From: Haliclystus octoradiatus
Taxonomy: Eukaryota; Cnidaria; Staurozoa; Stauromedusae; Haliclystidae
Direction of reading: 5' to 3'
Assembly (NCBI GenBank): GCA_916610825.1
Contig: OU744453.1
Location: 287,001 to 351,000, forward strand
DNA: 64,000 nt
Shown here: positions 8,434 to 63,370 of the stretch, piece after piece
Layout of the letters: every line of letters starts with the position of its first letter
Numbering within the stretch: the stretch's first letter is position 1
The notes under the pieces: model-generated
Told to the model about the DNA's origin: nothing
Database searches by the model: none
What the model saw: the letters and a program-made list of their open reading frames with translations, nothing else
Position numbers and translations under genes: made by a program

Positions 8434-38361
<29,928 letters not shown>

Positions 38362-43578: not shown

Positions 43579-43718
<140 letters not shown>

Positions 43719-44256
43719 GCCCAACAACAACAACCGCAAGTAGCCTCTGTTTATCAAGCACACGAGATAGCATGATCACCTGCTCAGAAGGAGACATTAG
43801 ACAAATGAAAGGTGTGCAGTGAAAACTTTTATGTTATAAAATTCGAAATAAAAACATCTGCCGTATATTGTATTGTTAATGACCGCTGGATTGCAAACAT
43901 TCGATCGACAGCTGATGTTTGAATTGGATCATCGGTGTTGCGGGCGCATTAGTTATTGTTCTGAAGTGACTGACTATTCGAATCCAGAGCTACACGGATC
44001 GATAAACGACAGCCATGGTCGAGACATTAATATTATTATTTATAGAAGGAGAGTCGTCCATCATCGTGCATAGTGATCTGCCACCCGTTAGATACAGCCA
44101 GTACATATGTAAGCATGTCACGATGAAATGAATAAATTCAAAGTTTGGTGGCTAACACATAAGAGAGTGGAAGCGATTAGCAGAAACACAATAAGAAAAT
44201 ATAACAGTGAAAAGAAAAGAGATATTGGATACAGTAATAATTAATCTTCATACCGC

Positions 44257-47200
44257 ATGGATGGCTTGATAGACACACTCACTAGGTCCAACCTACGAAT
44301 GAATTCATCGTCCATCCTCACTGTTATAAGAGGATTTGCAGCAAGAACCACAACGAGGCTGGTCTATTACAACACACAGGCAGTAAAAGTTAACGCCATA
44401 TTCTCGTTTCCTTTTTTCAGCAATTGGGAAGTAGTTGAGTTCGAGGCTAGCGTAGATGATCGTCATATCAAGACAATAGTACGAAACAATCAACTGGACG
44501 AGGCTGTAGATAGCGAGGCTGTAGATAGCATAAATACCGCTGCTCCCATCTTGTCAACATCAAAGGTAGACTACAGTGCTGAAATCGGCTGGGTGGCACC
44601 ACTGAGCACTGTTGAAATACGGTTGGTTTGCATAAGTGAATTGAGACAGATCGTGGAGCAGAATGCGTTGGCATTCAATCTACCTACCGTCCTAACATCA
44701 AATAGCACACCCATCCAAGATACAAATGCGTCACCAGCTCATTCGTGTGCATTGGAGGTGGACATTTACATTGAAGCACCATGTCTACTTTCAGGAATAC
44801 AATCAGTTGGCCACGTGGTAAGGGTTGACGCATCTCCATTGGCTGACAATGCATGCAGTGTTCATGTGACCCTTTCTGAAAACGCATCTTCTGATAGCAA
44901 AGCATTCGAGCTCTTACTTTTCCTTGAGAATCCGAATGACGCGTATTTCTACATAGAAGACCCGATTGACACGTCATCTGCAGATATTGCTAGCACCGAG
45001 GCCCCCTTAGACCCAACATTAGAGATCAAATGCCATCCAACTGTGGCATTCAGCTATTGTCCGAACCTGAAGAGTTGCAACTCAACTCAGCATCACGACG
45101 AAATAGTGTTCATGCTAGATCAGAGCGGGAGTATGAATGGGGATCGGATGATCAACGCACGCAATGCATTGTTATTAGGTATCATGAGCCTTCCTCCCAA
45201 TACCTTATTCAACGTGGTTAGTTTTGGAACATATTTCAAGACGCTATTCCCGTCTTCACGACTGAATGCAAAAAGACATGTAGAAGAGGCCTGTTGCTAT
45301 GTCAACGGTATTAAAGCAGACATGGGAGGTACGTCATTCCTTGAACCGCTGCAGTGGATATTCAACTCAGCACAGCATCGAGGCAGAGCCAAACAAGTCA
45401 TTATCATAACAGACGGTCACGTGACCGAGCCAACGGCAACCCTTGAGTTCATCAGATGCAGGAGACATTTGGCAAGGTAAAATAAATAACAATGAAACAA
45501 TAATAATAATAAATAATAATACGTTACCATCCCGGGTTACCATTAGTTACATCTGTTCTCTCTTACTGTTGCTATAGGGTATTCACTGTTGGCCTTGGCA
45601 ACGGTGTGAGCAAAGACTTCCTTTGGCAGATTGCACAATTAACCATGGGTGAAGCTGGAATTGTTTCCGACGGAGACAGATTGCAGCCAAAGGTAATAAG
45701 ATATTATTTAATGATGATTATCATCATCATCATCATCATCATTTATTCAGAACCTTTAAGTTAAACAAACGTTTTTCAAAGGACTGATAATTGAAGATGT
45801 CTCCTTTTTAATTTCAATATTATTGTTTATTTATCAACAGCTGATTAAATGGATCGAGGCCGCCATGGCAACACGGATTACTAACCTCAAAGCATCATGG
45901 ATCTTACCCGATGGATACGACGTGATATTTACACCAGAAAACAACCATGTTGTATTTTCAGGCCAAAGGATCATTCTGTATGCAGTCTTAGCGCAATCAT
46001 CGTCAAGTACTAGGAATGACAGATGGAGTGCTTCAGTACGAGACTCAATATCATCTGTAAAAGAGTTTTGGTTTGACGAAGACACATTTGCAGATGATCT
46101 GATTGGGACTCGGGAGAACAGCAAAAGATGGAATTCAGCAGGAACATATTCCACACTCACAGGATTTCAATCCAACCAAGAATATGCAACTACCGAAGAC
46201 GGTCTACGATCATCCAGTGAAAGTAACGAGAGTGGGCAGCATTCATCCGAAGAAGAAACAAGCAACTCGGACGATGCAGATTTGGAAAATGAAGTATTTT
46301 TAAACGAAAAAGAAGTTGAACAATTGAAAAACACAAAACGGTGGTGCAAAAGACATTCGATTGAGAAACTGCAGACATGGCGCGTGCGCAAAATAATTAA
46401 ACATCGATCGACGTCAGACTTCGTAGAAGACATCAGATCCACAGAAAGTCACAGCAGTGGAACAATGGAAGAACGCAGTGCGTGTAACACAGCAGGACGA
46501 ATGTCAGCGGATTACATAGAGATAGATAGAAGAAGTAACGAATCAACAACAGCCTACGAGAAACAACATACAAGCCAGGCAGGCTACACAACAACAAGCC
46601 ACAGCTCGTGTCGAAGTTGCGATGAACAATCACCCAGTTGTTCCTGCCTGCAGTGGGGAGAATGCACAGAAGAAATCGGAAGACCACGGAATTGTCCGTC
46701 AATGGAATCAATACGAGCGGCGTCAAGAGGTGCACTGGACAGAAGATCGATGGAAGAAAGGGCCGAAGCCAAGAGATTGAGCGATAGAATAAGTCGCAGT
46801 AGCTTTCATTTTTCAACTCACGAAGTAATGAAGTTATCAAAAGCTGTCACTGATGGCCACATCAACACACACGTACTTGATGCAGCCAATACGGTTGTTT
46901 TGGCGCAAATGTTAGACACCCTAGTGACAGAGAAAAGGCGTCGGCTGAAATACTTCTGTGAAATGCAGGAAGAGGTTGTTAAATGCTGTTGGCCAACACA
47001 CCACGATGAAATCATTGAACAAGAGGCCAAGAGGAAAGCGAGCCAAACAGAAAATGAGTTACTTTTGATACGAAGAGATAGTGGATTGGGACCGCATTCA
47101 TCCTCCGACGTCAGAAGTGATCTCGACGATGACTGCTTCCTGTTGACGAGTAAGAAAAGCATCAACGCCAAAGAGAGGCAGAATGATCGCAGTTCATCAG

Positions 47201-49737: not shown

Positions 49738-51219
49738 ATGGATCCTGACGGTGATAACAAATCGAATGACGAGCATCCTGTGTCGTCATCAGCCCATCAC
49801 ACACTTTTGCCAGTCAGACCAAATGAGAAGCAAGTATGGCCTTTTCTGTTCTGGCTGTACCTTAAAACCCTGGGTCTCTACAGAGCAGGTAAACAATTAA
49901 GTCAGACAAAATTTTTTATTTTATTTTCAAGTTTAGTGTCATCAACTGTGATTATCTTAAACTTATGTATGTATAATTGTGTATTATAATTGTTAAAATA
50001 TCCATTATCCTCTGATTATCTTATCTCGTTAGGTCCTTTTGTAACAATCCGTCGTTGTTCTGGATGTAAAGAAAGTGGATTTGAGAAATTTGCTAGCATC
50101 AGCTCATTTGTAGGGCCTTGTGAAATATGCGAGAGTTTTCTATGGGATCATGTAGGCCGTGTCAATTACGTGACAGATCGTGACATTGGAGCTGTCCGTC
50201 TCAATCACCGTGGTAGCGGTGCCCTGTCAATCATCTGGCTGTCCATTATTATATCTTGCTCCTTGTTTCTGATTGTTGTTGACGTAATCCGATTTGAACA
50301 TGAGACAGATGATGTGGTTGAAACACTGGCGACAGCATGTATTCAAATCTTGATAACAATTCCTGCGTTTGCTTGTCTCCATTGCAACATGAATGCAGCG
50401 TGGCCTCATTGTGCCCCTGGTCAATGGGCGTCAGCTCTACATCCAATATTCCTTGTGCAGAGATTGAGATGCGTCAATATGAGGCAGGCAAGAGCAGCTG
50501 GCTATTTCTTATGTTTCGGTAGTCTCGTTTTCATGGCCTTTCAATGTGTCCCAATTGGTCAAGACCTTTATGCGTATGGCTACGGATTCACCTACATCAC
50601 ACCAGTGAAATACTTCAGTCTGGTTATTGGAATTTTTAATTTTGGTGGTATAGCATACATTGCGTATCTTGTAAGGAGCAGTTTTGAGAAGGAGGTCAAA
50701 TTAATTTGCCGTTTCCTTGACCATCATATTGACGACATTGATGTATGTCGACTTCGCTTAGCGGAGACATTTGATTCGTTTCATCGTTTTCGTGAATTTA
50801 CATCCGGGTGGGTGTCAATGAATATTCTATTTAGTACAATCTGTGTCATGCTTGAGCTGCATGTTTTCATTGTTGCTACTGGACCGTTACGCTATTTCCA
50901 TTATGAACGCTTGGGTTTTTTACTAGCATGTTTTGTAGTACCTATTATAGCCAATGGCAACATCAGCGTTGATTATGTGTGGTATCGTATGGTGCGAAGA
51001 ATAAGCCGATTACGACGCAAAGACTTGGAATTTAACTGGGATAAAATTATGCAGTTTTTGCAAGAGCAAAAACCGGGAGATCGTCCCTGGCAATCTGTAA
51101 TGGCATTTTTATTGTCTACGATTGCGGTATTTGCTGCAGTTCAGTTCCGCATTTTAAACAGCAAAGCACTGAACAGCGCAACTGACCTGCGTAATATCAA
51201 TGTAACCATGACAATGTAG
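49738..51219 (+). CDS. Seven-transmembrane protein, candidate gustatory-receptor-like (GRL/7TMIC)
   Basis: Two exons, 49738-49888 and 50033-51219, join through a split glycine codon (YRAG-PFVT) into 445 residues. There is no signal peptide, and the roughly 125-residue hydrophilic N-terminus contains four cysteines (RRCSGC, GPCEIC). Seven hydrophobic segments follow, beginning SIIWLSIIISCSLFLIVVDV and ending SVMAFLLSTIAVFAAVQF. A long charged loop separates TM4 and TM5 (FEKEVKLICRFLDHHIDD), another separates TM6 and TM7, and the last helix ends in QF. That resembles the TYhhhhhQF motif of insect gustatory receptors, with Thr and Tyr replaced. Length and loop pattern fit the family, whose members form tetrameric ligand-gated cation channels. 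An unrelated 7TM family is possible. Function is inferred from pattern only. Confidence 0.5.
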
Positions 51220-53301: not shown

Positions 53302-55379
53302 ATGTGGCAACGGATATTGAGTACAGTTTTCATGTCAGTTTTAATCATCAAAAATGGTGGGTTAATAACGGTTTCGATATCAAATGGCAGTAATTTTAAT
53401 AATTGATTATAATTATATCCATTTATCATATTAGATGTTTCATCGTTAAAAACGACTGGTTTATCGATATACACTCTGAACCAAAGAGATACTAGCGAAC
53501 CCTTGAGAGTGTGGTCAGTCGTCAACCCAACAGAAGGGGGATCGATTGTAGATGACGCAGATGGCAATCTCTGTCAATCGACTACATTCGAATATCTTGA
53601 TTTAACACTAACTATCAAAGTTAAGAATCAGCAATCACCTACGCTGTGCATTGGGATTGATGTCGGCATTTATAGTCCAGAGGACGAATTAAAGTTTATT
53701 GATCGACCGCTAATTCTCAAGAAAGGTGAGTTTTATATTTGCATGAATTAATTCATAACAAAATTACTATATCTGTGCGTTATAGTAATGAGATGCGTAT
53801 TCATTTATCGGTAAAGTATGTTATGAAAAGTGGCTATTTGACGAGGACGGCGATCTCATGAGGCTCAATGGAGCAACCAATGTTTGCGTTGCGAGTATAG
53901 ACGGAACGCTGAATACTGTGGCATGTAACAATATTATTTTCACAGAGAAATACGTCACTATTAAATACGGTAAGATGCAACCTTCTCATGTGAATCTAAC
54001 AATCATCAACCAATTCATTACATCTGTTCAAATCATTATTAATCACAGCTGACTGCAGCAGATTTGTCTTTCCTGAGTCAATGGAAGGTTGGTACATACA
54101 TACTATTGGGTCTTTGTAGCGTGATAATTCATCTAATGAAATAATTCGATATTATCCTGACAGGAACGCGCTATGAACTAATGCATCCGTTTGTGCTAGA
54201 TCAAAGTGGACAATTTCATTTTTTCACCGTCGCAACAGATCACGGCACTTCACATGATACCATGCAGCTTCAACCAATCAGCGCAAAGTATCCTCTCTGT
54301 GGTCAGACAATGGCATCAACAGTCAGCGGTAAACTGATTGAGACCGCTGGACGAAGAAGCCTTTGTTACTGTATAATCAGATACGTCTATACCAGTACCC
54401 ATCGAAACCAACGGAGAGCATTAGAAGTCATCCGAGACATCGTTCTGTCAGCAGAAGGTACGTGATCATTACGTCGTGATGTAAACTCTAAATCACGTAA
54501 AATAATGCGGTATTATTATTTAGCTGCGAAGTGTTATCATTGCTCCAATGATTGACTCATAATTATAGTGTGACCTCCTTATCGTGACGGGCACGGCATG
54601 GGGGCAGCTCCCAACAAATGATTACATTGAATTGGAAAGCTTCTCAAGTACATCATCAAGTACATCATATCCGCACTGATTTCGGATAGCCCCTGCATTA
54701 GTTTAATCGTGACATGCGCACTGATTTCGGATAGCCCCTGCATTAGTTTAATCGTGACATGCGCACTGATTTCGGATAGCCCCTGCATTAGTTTAATCGT
54801 GACATGCGCACTGATTTCGGATAGCCCCTGCATTAGTTTAAGCGTGACATGCGCACTGATTTCGGATAGCCCCTGCATTAGTTTAAGCGTGACATGCGCA
54901 CTGATTTCGGATAGCCCCTGCATTAGTTTAATCGTGACATGCGCACTGATTTTGGATAGCCCCTGCATTAGTTTAAGCGTGACATGCGCACTGATTTCGG
55001 GCGTGAAAATTCAAGATAGTTCCCCTGTATTAATTCCTGTATGACATGAGCGAGGCACACTGCAAACCACTGACGTCTGTGTATCCGATTAGCTACACCT
55101 TTAGATCCTTCACCTTCATTGCATTGGAAATGGAAAGACTACATATTATCAATGGAAGTTGACGGCGAAGAGATTTGCCTTAGTTTTGACTTACAAACAA
55201 ACGCATTAACAATAGAGACATGCGTAGAAGCAGCGACGAACATGCAGCCTCGGTTTGGTTACTGTGAGTCAATCTTTAACAAAACAATAACAGGATAGAT
55301 GGATAACATTATTCTAACGGTTTTTATAATTTCCATTTGATAGATCGTTGCGGCATTGTTGAGAACAAATCATGCAAAG
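53302..55379 (+). CDS. Receptor-channel N-terminal, lectin-like exons
   Basis: Exons 53302-53389, 53435-53725, 53817-53969, 54049-54087, 54174-54457, 55105-55263 and 55344-55379, all joined after the first base of a codon. Two modules resemble ricin-B-type beta-trefoil repeats: KWLFDEDGDLMRLNGATNV with CVASIDGTLNTVAC, and EEICLSFDLQTNALTIETC ending in a Q-x-x-F-x-Y sequence. This is a weak resemblance, and the rest (LRVWSVVNPTEGG, FHFFTVATDHG) is not recognised. The 54458-55104 intron contains a 45-base tandem repeat. Confidence 0.55.
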
Positions 55380-58300
55380 GTATATATAGAGTATAGGTCT
55401 AATGGAGCCACGGTCACGTTGGAAGATAATAACCGTGATATATAGAATATAGGTCTAATGGAACCACGGTAACGTGGGAAGATAATAACCGTGATACATG
55501 TTCACATTGCAGGTGGCTGTGATTATCTGGCAACGAATGACGTCACAGGTTGCAAATCTCTCTGTTTGTTTCAATTGATAATGTTGTTCAGTGGTCATTA
55601 CTTTCTTACTTTCTACTGCAGATGCCATTTCCCGTTCTATCTTGAACCCGTGGAGCAACTGGTCAGCGTGCACTGTCAAATGCGGTGTTCAATCAGTCAC
55701 GAGAGAGAGGCAATGTATTCACGAATTACTAGGCATGATTCTTGAAAGCGAGGATGGATGCCAATCCATAGAATCAGAATCCTCTATTTGTAAGCAGCCG
55801 GCATGCCATGGTTTGAACATAGCCGACAAGCATTCCAGTTGTTCAGCGTACTGCGGTGATCACGGTCAGACCCTCTCTAAAGTCTAACCGAAACACGTAT
55901 GCAATCAAGTTTCATGGAATGATGTTAAAAAATGGTACTGCATTTTGTTTGACAGGTTTAGAATGTTCTGAAACGATTGAAACGGGCAACTCTATCGCAT
56001 CGATTGAAAACATCGGATTTCCATGCAACGTCAGCAATAATATCAACATCAGTCGCTGGCAGTTGTCGGTAGATCCAATGGTTCGATTTTCAAACAGCGA
56101 ATGTCATGGTTACGTCAATGTACCGTCTCTTGGTAATTGTTACTCATTCAGTTTTTCAGACGACATTCATCGCATATGCAAATGCGTTATACCAGGCATG
56201 TATTACACCGTATACGATACATACATGTTCGCATTGATACGAGATCATAATTTATTGATCTTTATTGATCTATCAGCCATTAAAGGATTTAGTCAATGGT
56301 CAAGGTGGTCGGAATGCGACGTCACGTGTGGAAATGGTTTGAAAACGAGATCAAGATATTGCTCAATGATGATTCGTCAACTGTATTGCCAAGGCAACTA
56401 CGATGACTCGGACAGTTGCAGCCAAGGAGATTGCCCAGGTATAAATGAATGAATGCTTTTCGTTGATGATGCAGCAGAGTTATGTAAAGAGCAGAATGGT
56501 CTTTTTTTAGTTCAAAATGAGTTGACGCCATGGTCTCAATGGTCCGACTGTTCGGTGACATGCAACAGAGGCTTATCAGAAAGAACACGCAGTTGTTTGA
56601 ATCAAGCATCTTTATGTTTCGATGTTGTCAAGGAGACAATTGTTTGCAATCCAGAATACTGTCCAGGTACGTTTAATCAATGGATCACGTGGATCGGATG
56701 CAACAGACCATGTGACGTTGCTTTCTACTTGTATTTTCTAGTTAGCGGTGGTTGGTCAGAATGGACCACGTGGACGGGATGCAACAGACCTTGTAATGGA
56801 GGTAATGACTTACGATATAGAGATTGCAATCGTCCTCAGCCTCTCTACAATGGAGCATCATGCGACGGCTCCCTTTCATCAGAGGCAATCGCTTGTAACG
56901 AACACATATGCCCAGGCAAGTATTTCATCAATCCCATGTCCTCTCTTCAACCCTACAATCCCATGTATTTATAGTAGTAACATATCTACTACACTGTAAA
57001 TTCGTTATGGCCATTAACGCAGTACATCATTGATGTATGTGGAGTGAATGTTGCTGGCGAAGGGCCCTGTTACCGCACGCACGCACGCACTCCGTCGGGT
57101 AAGCTTAATAAATACAGTAGTAGGGTTATAGAATAGCACACCATATTGTATGTTGTGGTAACTGCAACTCTCCCGTTTACAGAGGGAAATGTAACGATTT
57201 CCGTAGAGATTTTAGAGGAATGGGTCCAAGGAATGGAAGATCTCACTTCCAACGGAGCCAAAACATTTGAAAAGAAACTTCAACGAAATGTAAGAGACCA
57301 TCTCCAATACCATTGATATTTGATGAAATCGCTTAGTTGTTGTTGTTGTTGTCCAATATAATGAGTTTGATGTTTAGATTGATTATCTCTACGATGCAGA
57401 AACTGAAATAGCCATCAATCGATTGTGGTACGTCATCATCAATCGCTTACGTATATTTTCATTTATGTTTATGTTTTACTGTACCACCGATGGATGATCT
57501 TTTGGTAGGTTTGGTAGTGTCGGTGTTAGCTTCACACTGTTTTTTGATTCGCTGGATTCGTATCAGGTGCTGCTACTTCAGGACGCCATCGACATTGATT
57601 TTGCAATTCAAAAGTTACAATTGAATCAATCGTACACAGCCACCGTATCATCCCTTACAGGTAACACCATCAGTTCATCCGTGTATGCATGTCTGTAGAT
57701 CTCCCACCCGCCGTAACATTATATCAATATCTACTGCAGTACCACAGGGAGCCCCATCGAACGCCTCTGTTACCATGGTTGGTTCATTCTTCATTGTGAT
57801 GACGTGGCATGACGTACCTTTTGATCTACAAAACTACCCCGTTCTTGGCTACATCATTTTCTACAGACAGGCATCCAATCCTGTGTTTACTTATCACATG
57901 GCCGCTGCTAGCAATACCAACAATCAACCAAATTATTTAACTAACCTACAGCCTGATACAGCCTATTACATTCGCATCGCTGCATTTAACCAATTTGGGG
58001 TGGGCATAGCAACAGAACAACTTGTGGCTAAGACTCTGACAGCACGTAAGTCACGCGGACGATACCTCATTTCGGAAATTGAATAAAAATAATCAAATCA
58101 CACTTACATTTTAGTGCCTCGTTTGCCACCAAGTGATGTCATGACAATAACCATTGATGAGCATACAATAAAAGTGGATTGGGAACCAATTTCCATTGAA
58201 GACATGTACAATTCGCCTCGATGGTATGCCATTCGATACAGTGACACTACCCTCTTATCAAATACATATTCTATTACGGTTGACTACACTATAAATTCGT

Positions 58301-60895
58301 TAATGCTTACAAATTTATGGCCACTAACGCAGTACATCATCGATGTATGTGGAGTGAATGCTGCTGGCGAAGGGCCTTGTTACCGCACGCACGCAACTAC
58401 AGACCCGTCGGGTAAGCTTAATGATAAATATAATGAGTATGAAGTACAGTGAAGCCTCTCCCGTGACACCTGTTTCATTGTAATAATTGCAGGACCTAGT
58501 CAGCCACCTAGAAATCTACAAACCGTTTCCCTATTCAGTCACAGCAAACTAAAAGTGAAATGGGATTCTATCACCCCGTTTCACCGTCACGGTACACTGC
58601 AATCATACACAATTCTCTACAGACGGATAGCGACGGATTCCATACAAGTCATCGACAACTTGCCATTCCAAACAATTGTCATCCATCCATCTCTGAATGA
58701 CGTCATAATTTACAATTTAATGCCCAATTCAGAATACGAGATCATTGCATTCGGGACAAACGAACATGGCGATGGAGAAAAGTCAAACAGTAAATGGGGA
58801 GGTATACAATCAATAGTTACAAACAATAATATTAATCTACAAACGGTGACTTTGAAATGAGATTTAATGTGGTGTTTGTTTTGTTTATATGGCGACAAAC
58901 AGAAACGTGCAAATGCCCGCCATTGGTGTATTCAAATTACATCATCCAATCACCATACACTGCATTCGAATACCAAAGTGGTAAAATCAGCGGTCTATTC
59001 CCTGACATCATAACAAAAGCCATTGCCTCTGTGTGTGAGATATGTACCAACGGACACGGTTTAACATCCATCAGTTACGTATACAACGGAAGAGGGGACT
59101 GGTCACTAAAAGACAATCTAGATATGATCTTGAGAGACGCTGATCAATTCACACAAGTGACCTTCCCCCTCAGCACGACGTCATCGGCCATTTACTACAA
59201 CGGGTTTCCCTTTGTAAAGATTGTGGATGATCCTGGTTTGATTTTCTACACTTTAAAACCAAACATTTCTGATGCTGTGACTAAATTGGCTATTTCAATA
59301 CTCAAGACATGGCCGCTGGTTTTCTTTGTCGCTATTTTAGTTATTCTCAGCGGAGCTGTGATCTTTCTGCTCGTAAGTATCTAAGTCCAAATAATGAAAT
59401 TTAATGGCAATGGCGAGGCTATTGCTTTTCTTACTGACAGTGGCAGTCTCTTTTCAGGAAAGCATCAATTGCCATGACATAGAAGAGAGGCAAGGCATCA
59501 TACCAGGTCTCAAACGAGGCTATTATTGGTCATTCGTAACCATGTTTACAGTCGGGTGAGTAGCACAACCAACATTAAATCTATGTTTATCCCTTTCCAA
59601 GCATCAAATGATTATGTTGAATTGTGGCAGGTACGGTGACATTGTACCCGTGACGATCGTTGGCAAATTATTTGCAATTGTATGGATGATAATCAGTCTC
59701 ATTATGACGGCTATTCTTTTGGGAGTGATAACGTCACAGCTGATAGTCACGGTTACAGATTCAGCGAAACAAATCTATGGCACTGAGGTAAGTCTCTCAT
59801 TGATGTCACTACTCACAATATTCAACAGCAGCCTCAGTCTGATTCATCTGTTGATCCATTGAATTTACAGATTGGCGTTCTTTCTGATTCCCTGGCAGAA
59901 CGATACGCACTCGTGCGTAATGGGCGTGTCAATCAACGTAAGATTATGATCTGTCATCATCATCATCATCGTTATCAATCACTACGATGTATCTTTGAAT
60001 ACTGCGGTGTTAATGTGTCATTGACAGATCGAGCATACAGCTCATATCAACAGTTAGCAGATGCACTTTCCAGTAAAGAGATCGACGCCATCCTGGTAGA
60101 TGCATTACTTGAAAAAGACATAATAGATCTGTATGGTAAATATGGGTTTTTACCAAAGAGAATAATTAAAACTAAGAAAGCATACGGCATGGTGCTAACT
60201 GGTGAATTACAGTATAGTGCAGAAGAGTTTCGAATGGCAGCAAAAGAGTTGACGAATGGAAACGAGACTATTCATCATATGTTGCAGCCTACCATCAAGG
60301 TAATCGCCAATCTTTATTTAGCGACCACATGGGCTGTGTAAGGTGGTCACACAAACAGGTAGACCATTGTGTAAGAATTACTAATTTGTTTGATTGACAG
60401 GAGCTTCAAAGTGAGACCATCACAGTCTCTCTTCTAGACAGTGAATCTGAGTTGCTAAAAAATCTACTAATTGCATTGGCTATAATCTTAGGCCTCGCAA
60501 TCGTCATAGGCTTGACAGTTTCAATGCTACTGAAACGGTTCACGAAAACAAAACCACACCCAGCACAAGGTGAATATGTCATTACAACAATAACATCAAA
60601 TGAGAATTTCTTTGCGTTAATGAGTCCTGTTTGTTTTGATTGATTTTTCTTTACAGAGATGCTGGACGCTGATTGTTTAGAAGTGAACAACATAATTAAA
60701 ACATTCAAAACAAGAGCTTTGAAGATATTCAAAAGGATGGATCGACAGCATCGTCGTCAGATATTTAAAAAAATACTTTTCCCACCAAAATTAGCACCAG
60801 AACTTTATAACTTGAAAAGTCCACCAACTGATAGGCGAAATAGTCGCTTTAATCAAAATGTCAGCTTTGACTTTAGAAACATCGATACTTTGTAA
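53302..60895 (+). CDS. Glutamate-receptor-type channel with K+ filter and TSP1/SEA/FN3 ectodomain
   Basis: The ATG at 53302 gives a hydrophobic leader (MWQRILSTVFMSVLII) and splices in frame at 53389/53435. The gene then runs through roughly 25 small exons to a stop at 60893-60895; AATAAA follows at 60935. Most ectodomain introns share one phase (after the first codon base), which makes domains easy to shuffle. Domain order: lectin-like Cys-containing N-terminus, three TSP1 repeats, SEA, three FN3 domains, S1 half of a periplasmic-binding-type ligand domain, M1, pore helix with TVGYGD, M2, S2 half, a third membrane helix and a roughly 100-residue basic cytoplasmic tail. It should sit in the plasma membrane and pass K+ on ligand binding. 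Splices near 55863-55955 and 56110-56278 are uncertain. Confidence 0.8.
54672..55000. repeat. 45-base tandem repeat, about 7 copies
   Basis: The unit contains GCGCACTGATTTCGGATAGC and CCCTGCATTAGTTTAATCGT. Because 45 is a multiple of three, frames stay open on both strands (15-residue repeats reading SDSPCISL or QGLSEISAHV). Splicing of the flanking exons in matching phase places it in an intron of the receptor-channel gene. Confidence 0.93.
55376..55496. repeat. Two-copy direct repeat in an intron
   Basis: A roughly 56-base unit (TATAGGTCTAATGGAGCCAC ... GATAATAACCGTGATA) occurs twice between exons 55344-55379 and the one starting at 55513. Confidence 0.85.
55513..56925 (+). CDS. Receptor-channel thrombospondin type 1 repeats
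   Basis: After a small exon (GGCDYLATNDVT), TSP1 domain 1 starts near 55622 (NPWSNWSACTVKCGVQSVTR...CKQPACH). An intervening Cys-bearing segment (LECSETIETGNSIASI ... CHGYVNV) leads to TSP1-2 near 56278 (FSQWSRWSECDVTCGNGLKT), TSP1-3 near 56510 (LTPWSQWSDCSVTCNRGLSE) and TSP1-4 near 56741 (GGWSEWTTWTGCNRPCNGG). Domains 1-3 carry the W-x-x-W-x-x-C-x-x-x-C signature for C-mannosylation and layered Trp/Arg stacking. The last is a variant with a shortened spacing. Domains end in a C-P-G codon split by the intron. Such modules bind matrix glycans and guidance ligands. Counting the variant there are four, of which three are canonical. Confidence 0.8.
56672..56725 (+). pseudogene. Partial TSP1 exon duplicate in an intron
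   Basis: The sequence translating QWITWIGCNRPC copies part of the next exon (EWTTWTGCNRPC) but stops after the second Cys and lacks a donor, so it appears to be a relic of a partial tandem duplication. Confidence 0.6.
56985..57110 (+). pseudogene. Partial FN3 exon duplicate in an intron
   Basis: It is nearly identical to 58285-58425 (QYIIDVCGVN, AGEGPCYRTHA and even the GTAAGCTTAATA donor region), but the first half of the domain is absent and no acceptor joins in phase. Expansion of a GCAC repeat marks the copy. Confidence 0.7.
57181..57661 (+). CDS. Receptor-channel SEA domain exons
   Basis: Three small exons (about 57187-57291, 57379-57426 and 57510-57660) encode NVTISVEILEEWVQGMEDL, then DYLYDAETEIAINRLW, then FGSVGVSFTLFFDSLDSY. 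The GSVGV turn between strands matches the GSVVV autoproteolysis site of SEA domains in mucins and adhesion receptors, where Gly-Ser is cut during folding and the halves stay bound. Its position between TSP1 and FN3 modules would let the TSP1 part be shed. Confidence 0.7.
57741..58801 (+). CDS. Receptor-channel fibronectin type III domains
   Basis: Three FN3 domains, one per exon (57741-58048, 58115-58413, 58494-58801), each with split glycine/valine codons at the borders. Typical strands are visible: GAPSNASVTMVG...YPVLGYIIFYR...NLQPDTAYYIRIAAFNQFG; then IKVDWEPI...LWPLTQYIIDVCGVNAAG; then LKVKWDSI...LQSYTILYRR...LMPNSEYEIIAFGTNEHG. They are likely spacers that lift the TSP1 modules off the membrane. 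The third domain splices directly into the channel core at 58801/58903. Confidence 0.88.
58903..60895 (+). CDS. Channel core: S1, M1, TVGYGD pore, M2, S2, M3, tail
   Basis: Exons 58903-59372, 59458-59555, 59631-59787, 59871-60299, 60401-60569 and 60657-60895, all in frame. S1 begins CKCPPLVYSNYIIQSPYTAF. M1 is WPLVFFVAILVILSGAVIFL. The pore exon pair reads YYWSFVTMFTVGYGDIVP, the K+ channel pore helix and filter, with the 59555/59631 intron splitting the filter Gly codon. M2 is FAIVWMIISLIMTAILLGVI. S2 includes QLADALSSKEIDAILVDALL. The last helix is LLIALAIILGLAIVIGLTVS, before a basic tail. Two-helix pore plus third helix is the eukaryotic iGluR topology, whereas GluR0 ends after S2. The usual ligand-binding Arg in S1 is not apparent (segment TFPLSTTSSAIYY). 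Confidence 0.87.
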
Positions 60896-61423
60896 TGATT
60901 ACGCCATTGATAGTAACGTACTAATTATTATGTGAATAAATTAAGTTTGCACATTGGATATTCAGTATGAGTTTTGTTTTGAATTCTAAAAGTAAAGTTG
61001 AAAATTCAATTGATCTGCCTATTGAGAAAAAGGGACACCGCTGACCGTGCAGTATGTGAATTGAAATCAATTATTATACTGAAAAGGACGAAAATGACGT
61101 AATATGCAGCGCAAGAAAGATACAGACGTAGATGCACTCACTGGAGTATGTTGTCTTACAATCATCTTGAATATCCAATCTCCAAACTGTTTTGGGAGTT
61201 TCTTGTCCTTATTGGTAGATCACGTGATACAGTTGATTGTCATGGTAATAGGTCTTTGATTACATTGGATTCAATGGAGGATCTACGTTTGGACTATCCT
61301 AAAAATGGAGCAACTTTTTACAGAATTATCTTTGAGCTACTAACATTTCAAAAGGCTCGCTGTGTGTCTATGTAATGTGTCTTTCGTTGTGTATTTAGAA
61401 ATCTGATTGTCTTCTGCTAGTTT

Positions 61424-62489: not shown

Positions 62490-63370
62490 CGGCCAATTAC
62501 CAGCAACAAGCGAAACAGGCGAAGAAATATCACATGGTTTAATCCTCCCTATAATAAAAGTGTCAGGACAAACATCGGCCGAACATTTCTGAACCTTATT
62601 AAAAAAAACACTTACCAAAGTCGAATGAGTTAAGCAAAATAAAGACCATTATAACCAAGCATAACAACGAAATAATTAACAGAAAAAAGAAAAATCAGCA
62701 GGCTTGTACTAAACAATGCAACTGTAGGGTATAACAGCCTTGCCCATTTAACAATGAATGCCTCACAGAAAGTTTCGTTTACAAGGCAAAAGTTACTACG
62801 ACAAAAGATCAGGAAGGACAAAATTACATCGGTTTGGCGGATGGAGCCTTCAAACAAAGATACACTCAGCATATGATGTCATTCAAACACAGAAAATATA
62901 TTAACAGCACACAACTTTCGAAATACATCTGGAGACTAAAAGCTACGAAAGAAAACTACAAAATTGAATGGACCTACCTAGCTAAAGCGAAAGCATACAG
63001 CAATAAATCAAAAAAATGCCATCTATGTCTAATTGAAAAGTACCATATCATTTGCGCAGAAGAAGATCTATTGAATAAAAAGTCTGAACTCATTTCCAAA
63101 TGTAGACATGAAAATGAATTTTATCTAACTAATTATAAATCCGTTAAAACATAATATAATTTTATAATTTACATATGCAGATGATAACTAACCAGCGATA
63201 ATAGGAAATAACAACAATGCAATTTATTTCTAGCATCAAAAGCCTTTGTTCTGTTAAACAATAACTGTAGGTTTGAAAATCGATATAGGCGGAACTGTCT
63301 GTTTTTCATCAATTAGTTTATTTGTCTGATGATTGCGTAAGCATGAAACTATTAGTAACAATTATGAGAA
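62490..63370 (+). pseudogene. 5'-truncated Penelope-like element with GIY-YIG end
   Basis: It aligns with 30118-31040 of the element in the VPS13D intron: ITWFNPPYNKSV, NIGRTFLNL, a decayed Cys cluster, then NYIGLADGAFKQRYTQHMM, LSKYIWRLKA and the C-terminal CHLCLIEKYHIIC block, which here lacks the stop found in the other copy. The 3' end holds a hammerhead motif (63322-63361). There is no (TAA)n beside it. Confidence 0.85.
63322..63361 (+). ncRNA. Hammerhead ribozyme motif with compensatory changes
   Basis: UUGU, core CUGAUGA (63326-63332), stem II UUGC / GCAU around GUAA, GAAA (63345-63348), stem III ACU / AGU around AUU, GUA, then ACAA. Relative to the other copies stem I changed C-G to U-A and stem II changed C-G to U-A, with pairing kept both times. 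Confidence 0.78.

What the first reader, a model, noticed from the sequence alone, without database searches (positions are those of the whole stretch)
53302..60895. Glutamate-receptor-like channel with a potassium filter and a TSP1/SEA/FN3 ectodomain
Seen: in-frame exons place TSP1, SEA and FN3 modules directly before an S1-M1-P-M2-S2-M3 core whose P-loop reads YYWSFVTMFTVGYGDIVP, a textbook K+ channel pore helix and filter. Known: K-selective pores in glutamate-receptor scaffolds occur in cyanobacterial GluR0 and in AvGluR1 of the rotifer Adineta vaga. Animal iGluRs otherwise have Q/R/N-type non-selective pores and amino-terminal LIVBP domains. Inference: this is a matrix- or adhesion-coupled hyperpolarising receptor, an architecture I do not know to be described.
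Basis: partly seen in the sequence, partly recalled or inferred. Interest (0 to 1): 0.93.

Follow-up and report, generated by a model that had tools for sequence, protein, structure and literature searches.

The report
Jellyfish receptors with potassium-channel pores
A stalked jellyfish genome carries a family of genes that appear to join matrix-type outer domains to a glutamate-receptor-like channel whose pore has the potassium-channel signature, which suggests a kind of inhibitory (quieting) receptor not met in familiar animals.

Summary
Positions 53302-60895 form one 22-exon, 1552-aa gene model: 4 TSP1 domains, 3 FN3 domains, then S1-M1-P-M2-S2-M3 with filter TVGYGD. "SEA" found no library match. 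The S1 lobe alone found no relative. The joined S1+S2 profile matches bacterial substrate-binding proteins (best E 1.1e-4), mainly through S2.

It is not a lone oddity. Three contig lengths equal those printed for the stalked jellyfish Haliclystus octoradiatus. Core hits form 33 clusters. The filter half YG[D/E] is present in 26 of 26 loci where I read that exon. Four paralogs, one on the same and three on other chromosomes, repeat TSP1 - SEA-like - FN3 - channel, so "two genes" is very unlikely. The same genome has ordinary iGluRs, including a GluN1 relative.

Best reading: a family of K+-conducting, GluR0/AvGluR1-like receptors with adhesion-type ectodomains. The pore chemistry is strongly indicated; ligand, current and matrix binding are inferred. 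New variant of a known kind; nine literature searches on it found no description.

The parts
53302..53356 (+). exon 1, start codon and hydrophobic N-terminus (presumed signal peptide)
   Evidence: open frame, GT donor in phase 1; signal peptide by eye, not predicted by a program
53435..55263 (+). exons 2-5 (53435-53725, 53817-53969, 54164-54457, 55093-55263): N-terminal region without recognised domain
   Evidence: phase-1 exons with canonical splice sites; no Pfam match; no significant match in paralog A; least certain part
55622..55810 (+). exon 6: TSP1 domain 1
   Evidence: Pfam TSP_1, 4 stretches in the protein
55956..56438 (+). exon 7: unnamed Cys-containing domain (aa 386-468, also in paralog A) followed by TSP1 domain 2
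   Evidence: tblastn to paralog A 26.5% identity, E 1.1e-5
56511..56666 (+). exon 8: TSP1 domain 3
56742..56915 (+). exon 9: TSP1 domain 4; GC donor
   Evidence: 48% identity to an exon of paralog A
57183..57660 (+). exons 10-12 (57183-57289, 57378-57427, 57509-57660): SEA-like segment with GSV motif
   Evidence: 53% identity over 32 aa to paralog A, E 2e-4; no Pfam or PDB match
57740..58801 (+). exons 13-15 (57740-58045, 58115-58411, 58493-58801): three FN3 domains
   Evidence: Pfam fn3, 3 stretches, 3.4e-24
58903..59282 (+). S1 (first half of the ligand-binding region), exon 16
   Evidence: TC.C...C..C pattern conserved; lobe not recognised on its own
59283..59372 (+). M1 transmembrane helix (continues into exon 17)
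   Evidence: hydropathy 3.16; helix at residues 121-155 of the otherwise poor single-sequence model, block pLDDT 62-96
59458..59555 (+). exon 17: M1-P linker and pore helix YYWSFVTMFTV
   Evidence: Ion_trans_2
59631..59787 (+). exon 18: second half of the filter (YGD, 59632-59640; intron splits TVG|YGD in phase 2) and M2
   Evidence: YG[D/E] in 26 of 26 loci where this exon was read
59871..60299 (+). exons 19-20 (59871-59937, 60028-60299): S2, with a conserved Asp that falls at the amine-binding position of substrate-binding proteins (position recalled)
   Evidence: profile match to SBPs 3kzg 1.1e-4 and 4zv1 4.6e-4; Asp in 8 of 8 rows
60401..60569 (+). exon 21: end of S2 and M3 helix (about 60446-60544)
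   Evidence: hydropathy 3.03
60657..60895 (+). exon 22: basic C-terminal tail and stop; AATAAA at 60935
   Evidence: 19 K+R against 9 D+E in aa 1466-1552

Best explanation
The gene encodes one subunit of a tetrameric, probably K+-selective channel of the glutamate-receptor superfamily with inverted (GluR0/iGluR-type) topology. The TSP1 and FN3 modules and S1 are outside; M1 enters the membrane; the P-loop with TVGYGD dips in from the cytosolic side; M2 returns; S2 is outside; M3 leads to a basic cytosolic tail. S1 and S2 form a clamshell whose closure would pull the pore open. Opening would let K+ out and quiet the cell. The TSP1/FN3 chain takes the place of the LIVBP amino-terminal domain and probably binds matrix or neighbouring cells, placing the channel or gating it by contact. 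Shown here (sequence only): one gene model, filter, order of parts, S2 similarity to substrate-binding proteins, conservation across a family under purifying selection. Inferred: topology, tetramer, K+ selectivity, ligand gating, adhesion.
For: Closed 22-exon frame. Pore matches K+ channels (Ion_trans_2 1.3e-14; family profile 1.1e-15 to a named voltage-gated K+ channel). YG[D/E] in 26 of 26 loci where that exon was read. S1+S2 profile of nine loci: 16 of 17 PDB sequences with E<=10 are type-3 substrate-binding or GluR0-type proteins or their relatives, best 1.1e-4, including 2pyy (0.06) and GluR0 1ii5 (0.55). Lig_chan passes its cut-off at two family loci, C5:27.97 and C5:13.85 Mb (36.5 and 35.9 bits), and is matched at E<=0.1 by 12 of 16 members (the other four rows hold no pore), best 2.1e-11. 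Architecture repeated in paralogs; 29 of 34 non-window SEA/FN3 hits lie within 20 kb upstream, same strand, of a channel-core hit, while 20 kb at each of 33 clusters is about 0.25% of the genome. dN/dS 0.09-0.28 in the 11 closest pairs. GluR0 sits in the membrane the opposite way to KcsA (PMC13099474, passage).
Against: The window gene's own Lig_chan score is below the cut-off, and its joined S1+S2 alone has no Pfam match. The S1 lobe is not recognised alone. No S1 column has Arg in all rows, and the window gene lacks Arg at all three S1 columns where 40% or more have it, so the usual alpha-carboxylate contact of amino-acid receptors may be missing. Single-sequence AlphaFold of S1 failed (pLDDT 45.6). 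No transcript, current or binding data. No relative outside this one genome was examined.
Confidence: 0.7

Rival explanations
1. Two neighbouring genes: a TSP1/FN3 adhesion protein ending after exon 15 and a separate channel gene starting at the ATG at 58857.
For: In the window an in-frame ATG precedes S1 (MRFNVVFVLFIWRQTETC...), and reading through exon 15 without splicing meets a stop at 58858-58860. Loci B, J and T also have an in-frame ATG there.
Against: The gap is only 101 b and has no AATAAA or ATTAAA. 15 of 15 S1 exons read start right after an AG, and 11 of 15 have no in-frame ATG between the preceding stop and S1. The order is repeated in four other loci.
Confidence: 0.03
2. A K+ channel that is not ligand gated: a leak or mechanically gated K+ channel in which the old binding clamshell is now only a linker or a force-transmitting part for the ectodomain.
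For: The pore resembles K+ channels. S1 is very diverged and lacks an invariant Arg. The ectodomain looks like an adhesion chain.
Against: S2 keeps substrate-binding similarity and its Asp in 8 of 8 rows.
Confidence: 0.2
3. An adhesion or chemosensory receptor whose pore no longer conducts, or conducts without K+ selectivity.
For: A filter sequence does not prove selectivity; nothing was measured.
Against: The filter half is kept in 26 of 26 loci read while the S1 regions aligned are only 21-33% identical to the window gene's; dN/dS is low.
Confidence: 0.1
4. On origin (compatible with the best reading of how it works): not an old K+-selective branch with GluR0 and AvGluR1, but an animal iGluR that regained a K+ filter, or a K+ channel pore newly fused to a substrate-binding domain.
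For: The pore resembles Kv, TOK and K2P channels.
Against: None of the 17 PDB sequences matched by the S1+S2 profile at E<=10 is an animal iGluR binding domain; GluR0-type and bacterial proteins are among them.
Confidence: 0.35

Closest known systems
AvGluR1 of the rotifer Adineta vaga (Janovjak 2011; paper not held; seen only through passages of PMC12226733, PMC12332018, PMC11479355)
   Same: Animal, glutamate-receptor order with a last transmembrane helix, K+-channel filter signature.
   Different: Described as having the architecture of eukaryotic iGluRs (PMC12332018); no TSP1/FN3 ectodomain is mentioned in the passages read. The jellyfish genes form an expanded family and lack an invariant S1 Arg.
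GluR0 of Synechocystis (Slr1257) and bacterial relatives
   Same: K+ filter between S1 and S2; S1+S2 profile matches GluR0-type chains weakly (2pyy 0.06, 1ii5 0.55).
   Different: GluR0 lacks the M4 helix and the amino-terminal domain (PMC11479355, passage); ours has a third helix, basic tail and a long ectodomain.
Animal iGluRs (GluN1, AMPA/kainate, epsilon, lambda)
   Same: Order of S1-M1-P-M2-S2-M3 and Lig_chan similarity.
   Different: No LIVBP domain found, no Q/R/N-type pore; ordinary iGluR fragments of this same genome match GluN1 (1.2e-31) and GluA/GluK (2.8e-25) instead.
Kv, K2P, TOK and KcsA K+ channels
   Same: Pore helix and filter.
   Different: Embedded between S1 and S2; topology inferred to be inverted.
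Adhesion GPCRs (recalled comparison)
   Same: Long extracellular chains of varied adhesion modules on a signalling membrane core.
   Different: Channel instead of a 7TM core; the SEA-like part is unproven. An analogy in working only.

Membership tests
Ionotropic glutamate receptor superfamily | S1-M1-P-M2-S2-M3 order with extracellular S1 and S2 | tested here: met
   Order and hydropathy, order repeated in paralogs. The side of the membrane is inferred from the extracellular-type modules joined to S1.
Ionotropic glutamate receptor superfamily | Ligand-binding region homologous to type-3 substrate-binding proteins | tested here: met
   S1+S2 profile to 3kzg 1.1e-4, 4zv1 4.6e-4; matches lie mainly in S2. 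S1 alone: no relative, so only half is shown.
Ionotropic glutamate receptor superfamily | Pfam Lig_chan at its curated cut-off | tested here: inconclusive
   Window gene 19.8 bits, below 30.8; loci C5:27.97 and C5:13.85 above (36.5, 35.9); 12 of 16 members match at E<=0.1.
Ionotropic glutamate receptor superfamily | S1 arginine for the ligand alpha-carboxylate and S2 acidic residue for its amine (recalled) | tested here: inconclusive
   S2 Asp 8 of 8; no invariant Arg in S1, window gene lacks it at the three partly-Arg columns. Alignment of S1 to known receptors uncertain.
Animal iGluRs (AKDF, NMDA, epsilon) | LIVBP-like amino-terminal domain | tested here: not met
   Pfam finds TSP1 and fn3 instead.
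Animal iGluRs (AKDF, NMDA, epsilon) | Q/R/N-type non-K+ filter | tested here: not met
   TVGYGD; YG[D/E] in 26 of 26 loci read.
GluR0/AvGluR1-type K+-selective glutamate receptors | K+-channel filter between S1 and S2 | tested here: met
GluR0/AvGluR1-type K+-selective glutamate receptors | Common descent with GluR0/AvGluR1 | not tested
   No AvGluR1 sequence held; no tree built.
GluR0/AvGluR1-type K+-selective glutamate receptors | Amino-acid-gated K+ current | not testable with these tools
   Needs expression and recording.
SEA domain | Match to the SEA family | tested here: not met
   No Pfam hit for the window segment or any of 5 members; no PDB hit. GSV in 4 of 5 rows by eye.
TSP1 and FN3 domains | Pfam TSP_1 and fn3 above cut-off | tested here: met
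   101.9 and 85.3 bits; paralog exons of A, C2:38.8 and C5:21.30 too.

The most novel reading that the evidence does not exclude
Stalked jellyfish have a whole class of adhesion-type, ligand-gated K+ channels: tens of genes that carry a K+-selective glutamate-receptor core under mixed matrix modules (TSP1, FN3, and in some copies perhaps CUB, Ig or fibrinogen-like parts), giving direct, fast inhibition without chloride channels or G proteins, set by matrix or cell contact, alongside ordinary excitatory iGluRs in the same animal.
Probability: 0.45. Interest if true: 0.92.

Novelty: new variant of a known kind. Interest (0 to 1): 0.8.

Why it matters
In the passages I read, the K+-filter glutamate receptors named are bacterial GluR0 and rotifer AvGluR1, the latter called highly atypical (PMC12226733). 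A large, selected family in a cnidarian next to a GluN1 relative would mean that K+-selective receptor cores are an established branch of animal signalling rather than a curiosity. It would offer a testable route to fast inhibition in an early nervous system, and it would show that the amino-terminal domain of this superfamily can be exchanged for adhesion modules.

Tried and rejected
Tried without result: Pfam for the SEA-like segment and PDB; PDB with S1 alone (four weak, unrelated hits); Pfam for the joined S1+S2 of the window gene (none; NCBIfam gave a weak SBP match, 0.0076); single-sequence AlphaFold of the S1 exon (pLDDT 45.6, not used for a fold search); the S2 exon job was interrupted and no fold search was run. 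Considered and rejected: two genes (see rivals); ordinary K+ channel exon; bacterial or contaminant origin (introns throughout, adhesion exons, paralogs on chromosome-scale scaffolds that also hold ordinary animal iGluRs).

Literature: ten searches, of which one search was for the species and nine bore on the receptor; none of their listings showed this architecture. Listings were capped (for example 528 and 657 papers matched listed), and most subscription papers are not held. In one search the one unrelated row of 17 is a ribosomal protein (E 0.74).

Full report
What is in the sequence. I rebuilt the gene from the raw DNA. Twenty-two exons between 53302 and 60895 join through 21 introns (20 GT-AG, one GC-AG; 69-635 b) with no frame break, giving 1552 aa and an AATAAA 40 b past the stop. 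Pfam finds four TSP_1 stretches (E 2e-29), three fn3 stretches (3.4e-24) and Ion_trans_2 (1.3e-14); Lig_chan scores 19.8 bits, below its cut-off of 30.8. The P-loop reads YYWSFVTMFTVGYGDIVP as reported. Hydropathy gives three strong segments in the right places. Two labels are not borne out: the SEA segment matches no library, and S1 alone finds no relative. Exons 1-5 rest on splice sites and phase only.

Which animal. The window is G000:C10:287001-351000. Lengths of contigs C1, C5 and C10 (39,977,743; 28,991,210; 20,733,292) equal the longest, N50 and N90 lengths printed for Haliclystus octoradiatus jrHalOcto1.1, which also has 33 scaffolds and an 18.3-kb mitochondrial genome (PMC9975415, part 1 of 2 of the text read; C33 is 18,316 b). 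The printed total is 261,898,343 b and G000 has 261,861,806 b, a difference of 36.5 kb that I did not explain. The window lies on the 20.73-Mb chromosome 8 of the paper's table. This is a stalked jellyfish (Staurozoa, Cnidaria).

A family, not one gene. Searching the own genome with the channel core gave 74 matches. I dropped six further exon hits of the window's own gene and 15 hits that looked like ordinary K+ channels from their position on the query and open-frame length; the other 53 fall into 33 clusters, the window included. Some weak single-hit clusters may not belong, so 33 is a rough count. My spliced aligner read 20 loci including the window. Where the exons were covered, the S1-M1 exon generally runs from phase 1 to 0 (split in two in K, U and apparently L and T), the pore-helix exon from 0 to 2, the filter-M2 exon is usually 157 b (fused with the next in P, read less clearly in O and H) and the next usually 64-67 b; locus D was not read reliably beyond M2. 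The intron cuts the filter between TVG and YGD. The filter half YG[D/E] (E once) was present in 15 of 15 loci covering it, in the C5:21.30 locus and in 10 of 10 further loci (which also re-read H and C): 26 of 26. Five of the 20 loci (E, F, J, T, U) did not reach the filter there; E, F and J were read, T and U were not. These loci were found by similarity to these very exons, so copies that lost the filter could have been missed. Among pairs sharing more than 90 codons, the 11 closest have dN/dS 0.09-0.28; silent sites are near saturation in several, so the values are rough.

Is it one gene? Paralog A, 3.4 Mb away on the same chromosome, is collinear over about 15 kb: TSP1, the unnamed domain of exon 7, three more TSP1, SEA-like, three FN3, S1-M1, P, M2, S2 (tblastn identities 23-53%) and M3; its TSP1 and FN3 are confirmed by Pfam. 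The C5:21.30-Mb locus has four TSP1-like exons (three tested by Pfam), SEA-like plus FN3 in one exon, two more FN3 (three by Pfam), S1, P, M2 and an S2 segment. C2:38.8 Mb has three TSP1 (Pfam), SEA-like, three FN3 (one tested by Pfam) and the channel; C8:11.4 Mb has one TSP1, SEA-like, FN3-like frames (one by tblastn, two by eye) and the channel. Locus D has three FN3 and locus C one FN3 exon before S1; the last FN3 exons of A, C, D and C5:21.30 are bounded by AG and GT sites. Of 34 non-window hits to the SEA/FN3 part, 29 lie within 20 kb upstream of a channel-core hit on the same strand; five do not. The S1 exon starts after an AG acceptor in 15 of 15 loci read, and in 11 of 15 there is no in-frame ATG before it; the window, B, J and T do have one. 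Together these make the two-gene reading very unlikely, though no transcript was seen. Upstream of the C1:24.23 copy lie CUB (6e-16) and Ig (3.6e-9) open frames, and upstream of the C2 copy a fibrinogen-C frame (7.3e-27); that these belong to the same genes is not shown.

What the core is. The whole-core family profile matches 430 PDB sequences at E<=0.001; of the 60 shown, 59 bear K+ channel names, and the best (3.2e-16) is called only Lmo2059 protein. With the pore removed, the S1+S2 profile of nine loci matches 17 PDB sequences at E<=10. Sixteen are type-3 substrate-binding proteins or relatives, two of them below 0.001, among them a bacterial iGluR homologue (2pyy, 0.06) and Synechocystis GluR0 (0.55). 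None is an animal iGluR domain. The matches fall mainly in S2. Lig_chan passes its cut-off at two family loci. As a contrast, ordinary receptors in the same genome are recognised at once: one fragment as GluN1 (1.2e-31), one as AMPA/kainate type (2.8e-25). In S2 an Asp that falls at the amine-binding position of substrate-binding proteins (recalled) is kept in 8 of 8 rows; S1 has no invariant Arg. S1 has a conserved Cys pattern.

How it most likely works. Since extracellular-type modules lead into S1 with no hydrophobic segment between, S1 should be outside, so the P-loop should enter from the cytosol as in GluR0, which lies opposite to KcsA (PMC13099474, passage). With a K+ filter, opening lets K+ out and quiets the cell. 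Closure of an S1/S2 clamshell is the expected trigger; the ligand is unknown and may not be a standard amino acid. The TSP1/FN3 chain probably fixes the receptor to matrix or neighbours. My odds: one gene 0.95; K+ selective 0.85; ligand gated 0.65; adhesion role 0.5.

Known context. Passages of three papers name GluR0 and/or AvGluR1 as K+-filter glutamate receptors (PMC12226733, PMC12332018, PMC11479355). The metazoan iGluR survey PMC6307864 has no occurrence of the word 'potassium' in its main text (passages read). Nine searches of the held library on the receptor listed no description of this architecture; that does not exclude one in papers not held or not listed. I classify it as a new variant of a known kind: the core works like GluR0/AvGluR1, but common descent with them was not tested.

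Noticed in passing
57005-57122: Intron 9 holds a partial copy of the end of FN3 exon 14 with its donor and the start of intron 14 (58315-58439); a possible decoy or nascent exon.
   Followed up: partly
54672-55000: 45-b tandem array, 7.3 copies, 98% matches, in intron 4.
   Followed up: no
9003-25629, minus strand: VPS13-like gene: VPS13_M 3.2e-8 and VPS13_C 0.0012, both below Pfam cut-offs.
   Followed up: partly
44245-45477, plus strand: VIT plus VWA domain frame; later frames to 48816 may be its continuation (not tested).
   Followed up: partly
49990-51219, plus strand: 409-aa open frame with about seven hydrophobic stretches and no Pfam match; possibly a receptor-like single-exon gene.
   Followed up: partly
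28579-30693 and 62735-63154, plus strand: Retroelement-like frames sharing a YIGL....F..RYTQH stretch (GIY-YIG-like by eye); no Pfam match.
   Followed up: partly
L062 (mitochondrial contig C33:1-8000): cox1 (Pfam) and a DNA-polymerase-like frame (by eye) on one strand; frames that look like cox2, atp6, cox3 and nad2 on the other; tRNA-Trp and tRNA-Met scored best, as recalled for Medusozoa.
   Followed up: partly
11008-12263, 27696-28106, 31057-31297, 43581-43717: Long AAT/TTA-type arrays, up to about 411 copies.
   Followed up: no
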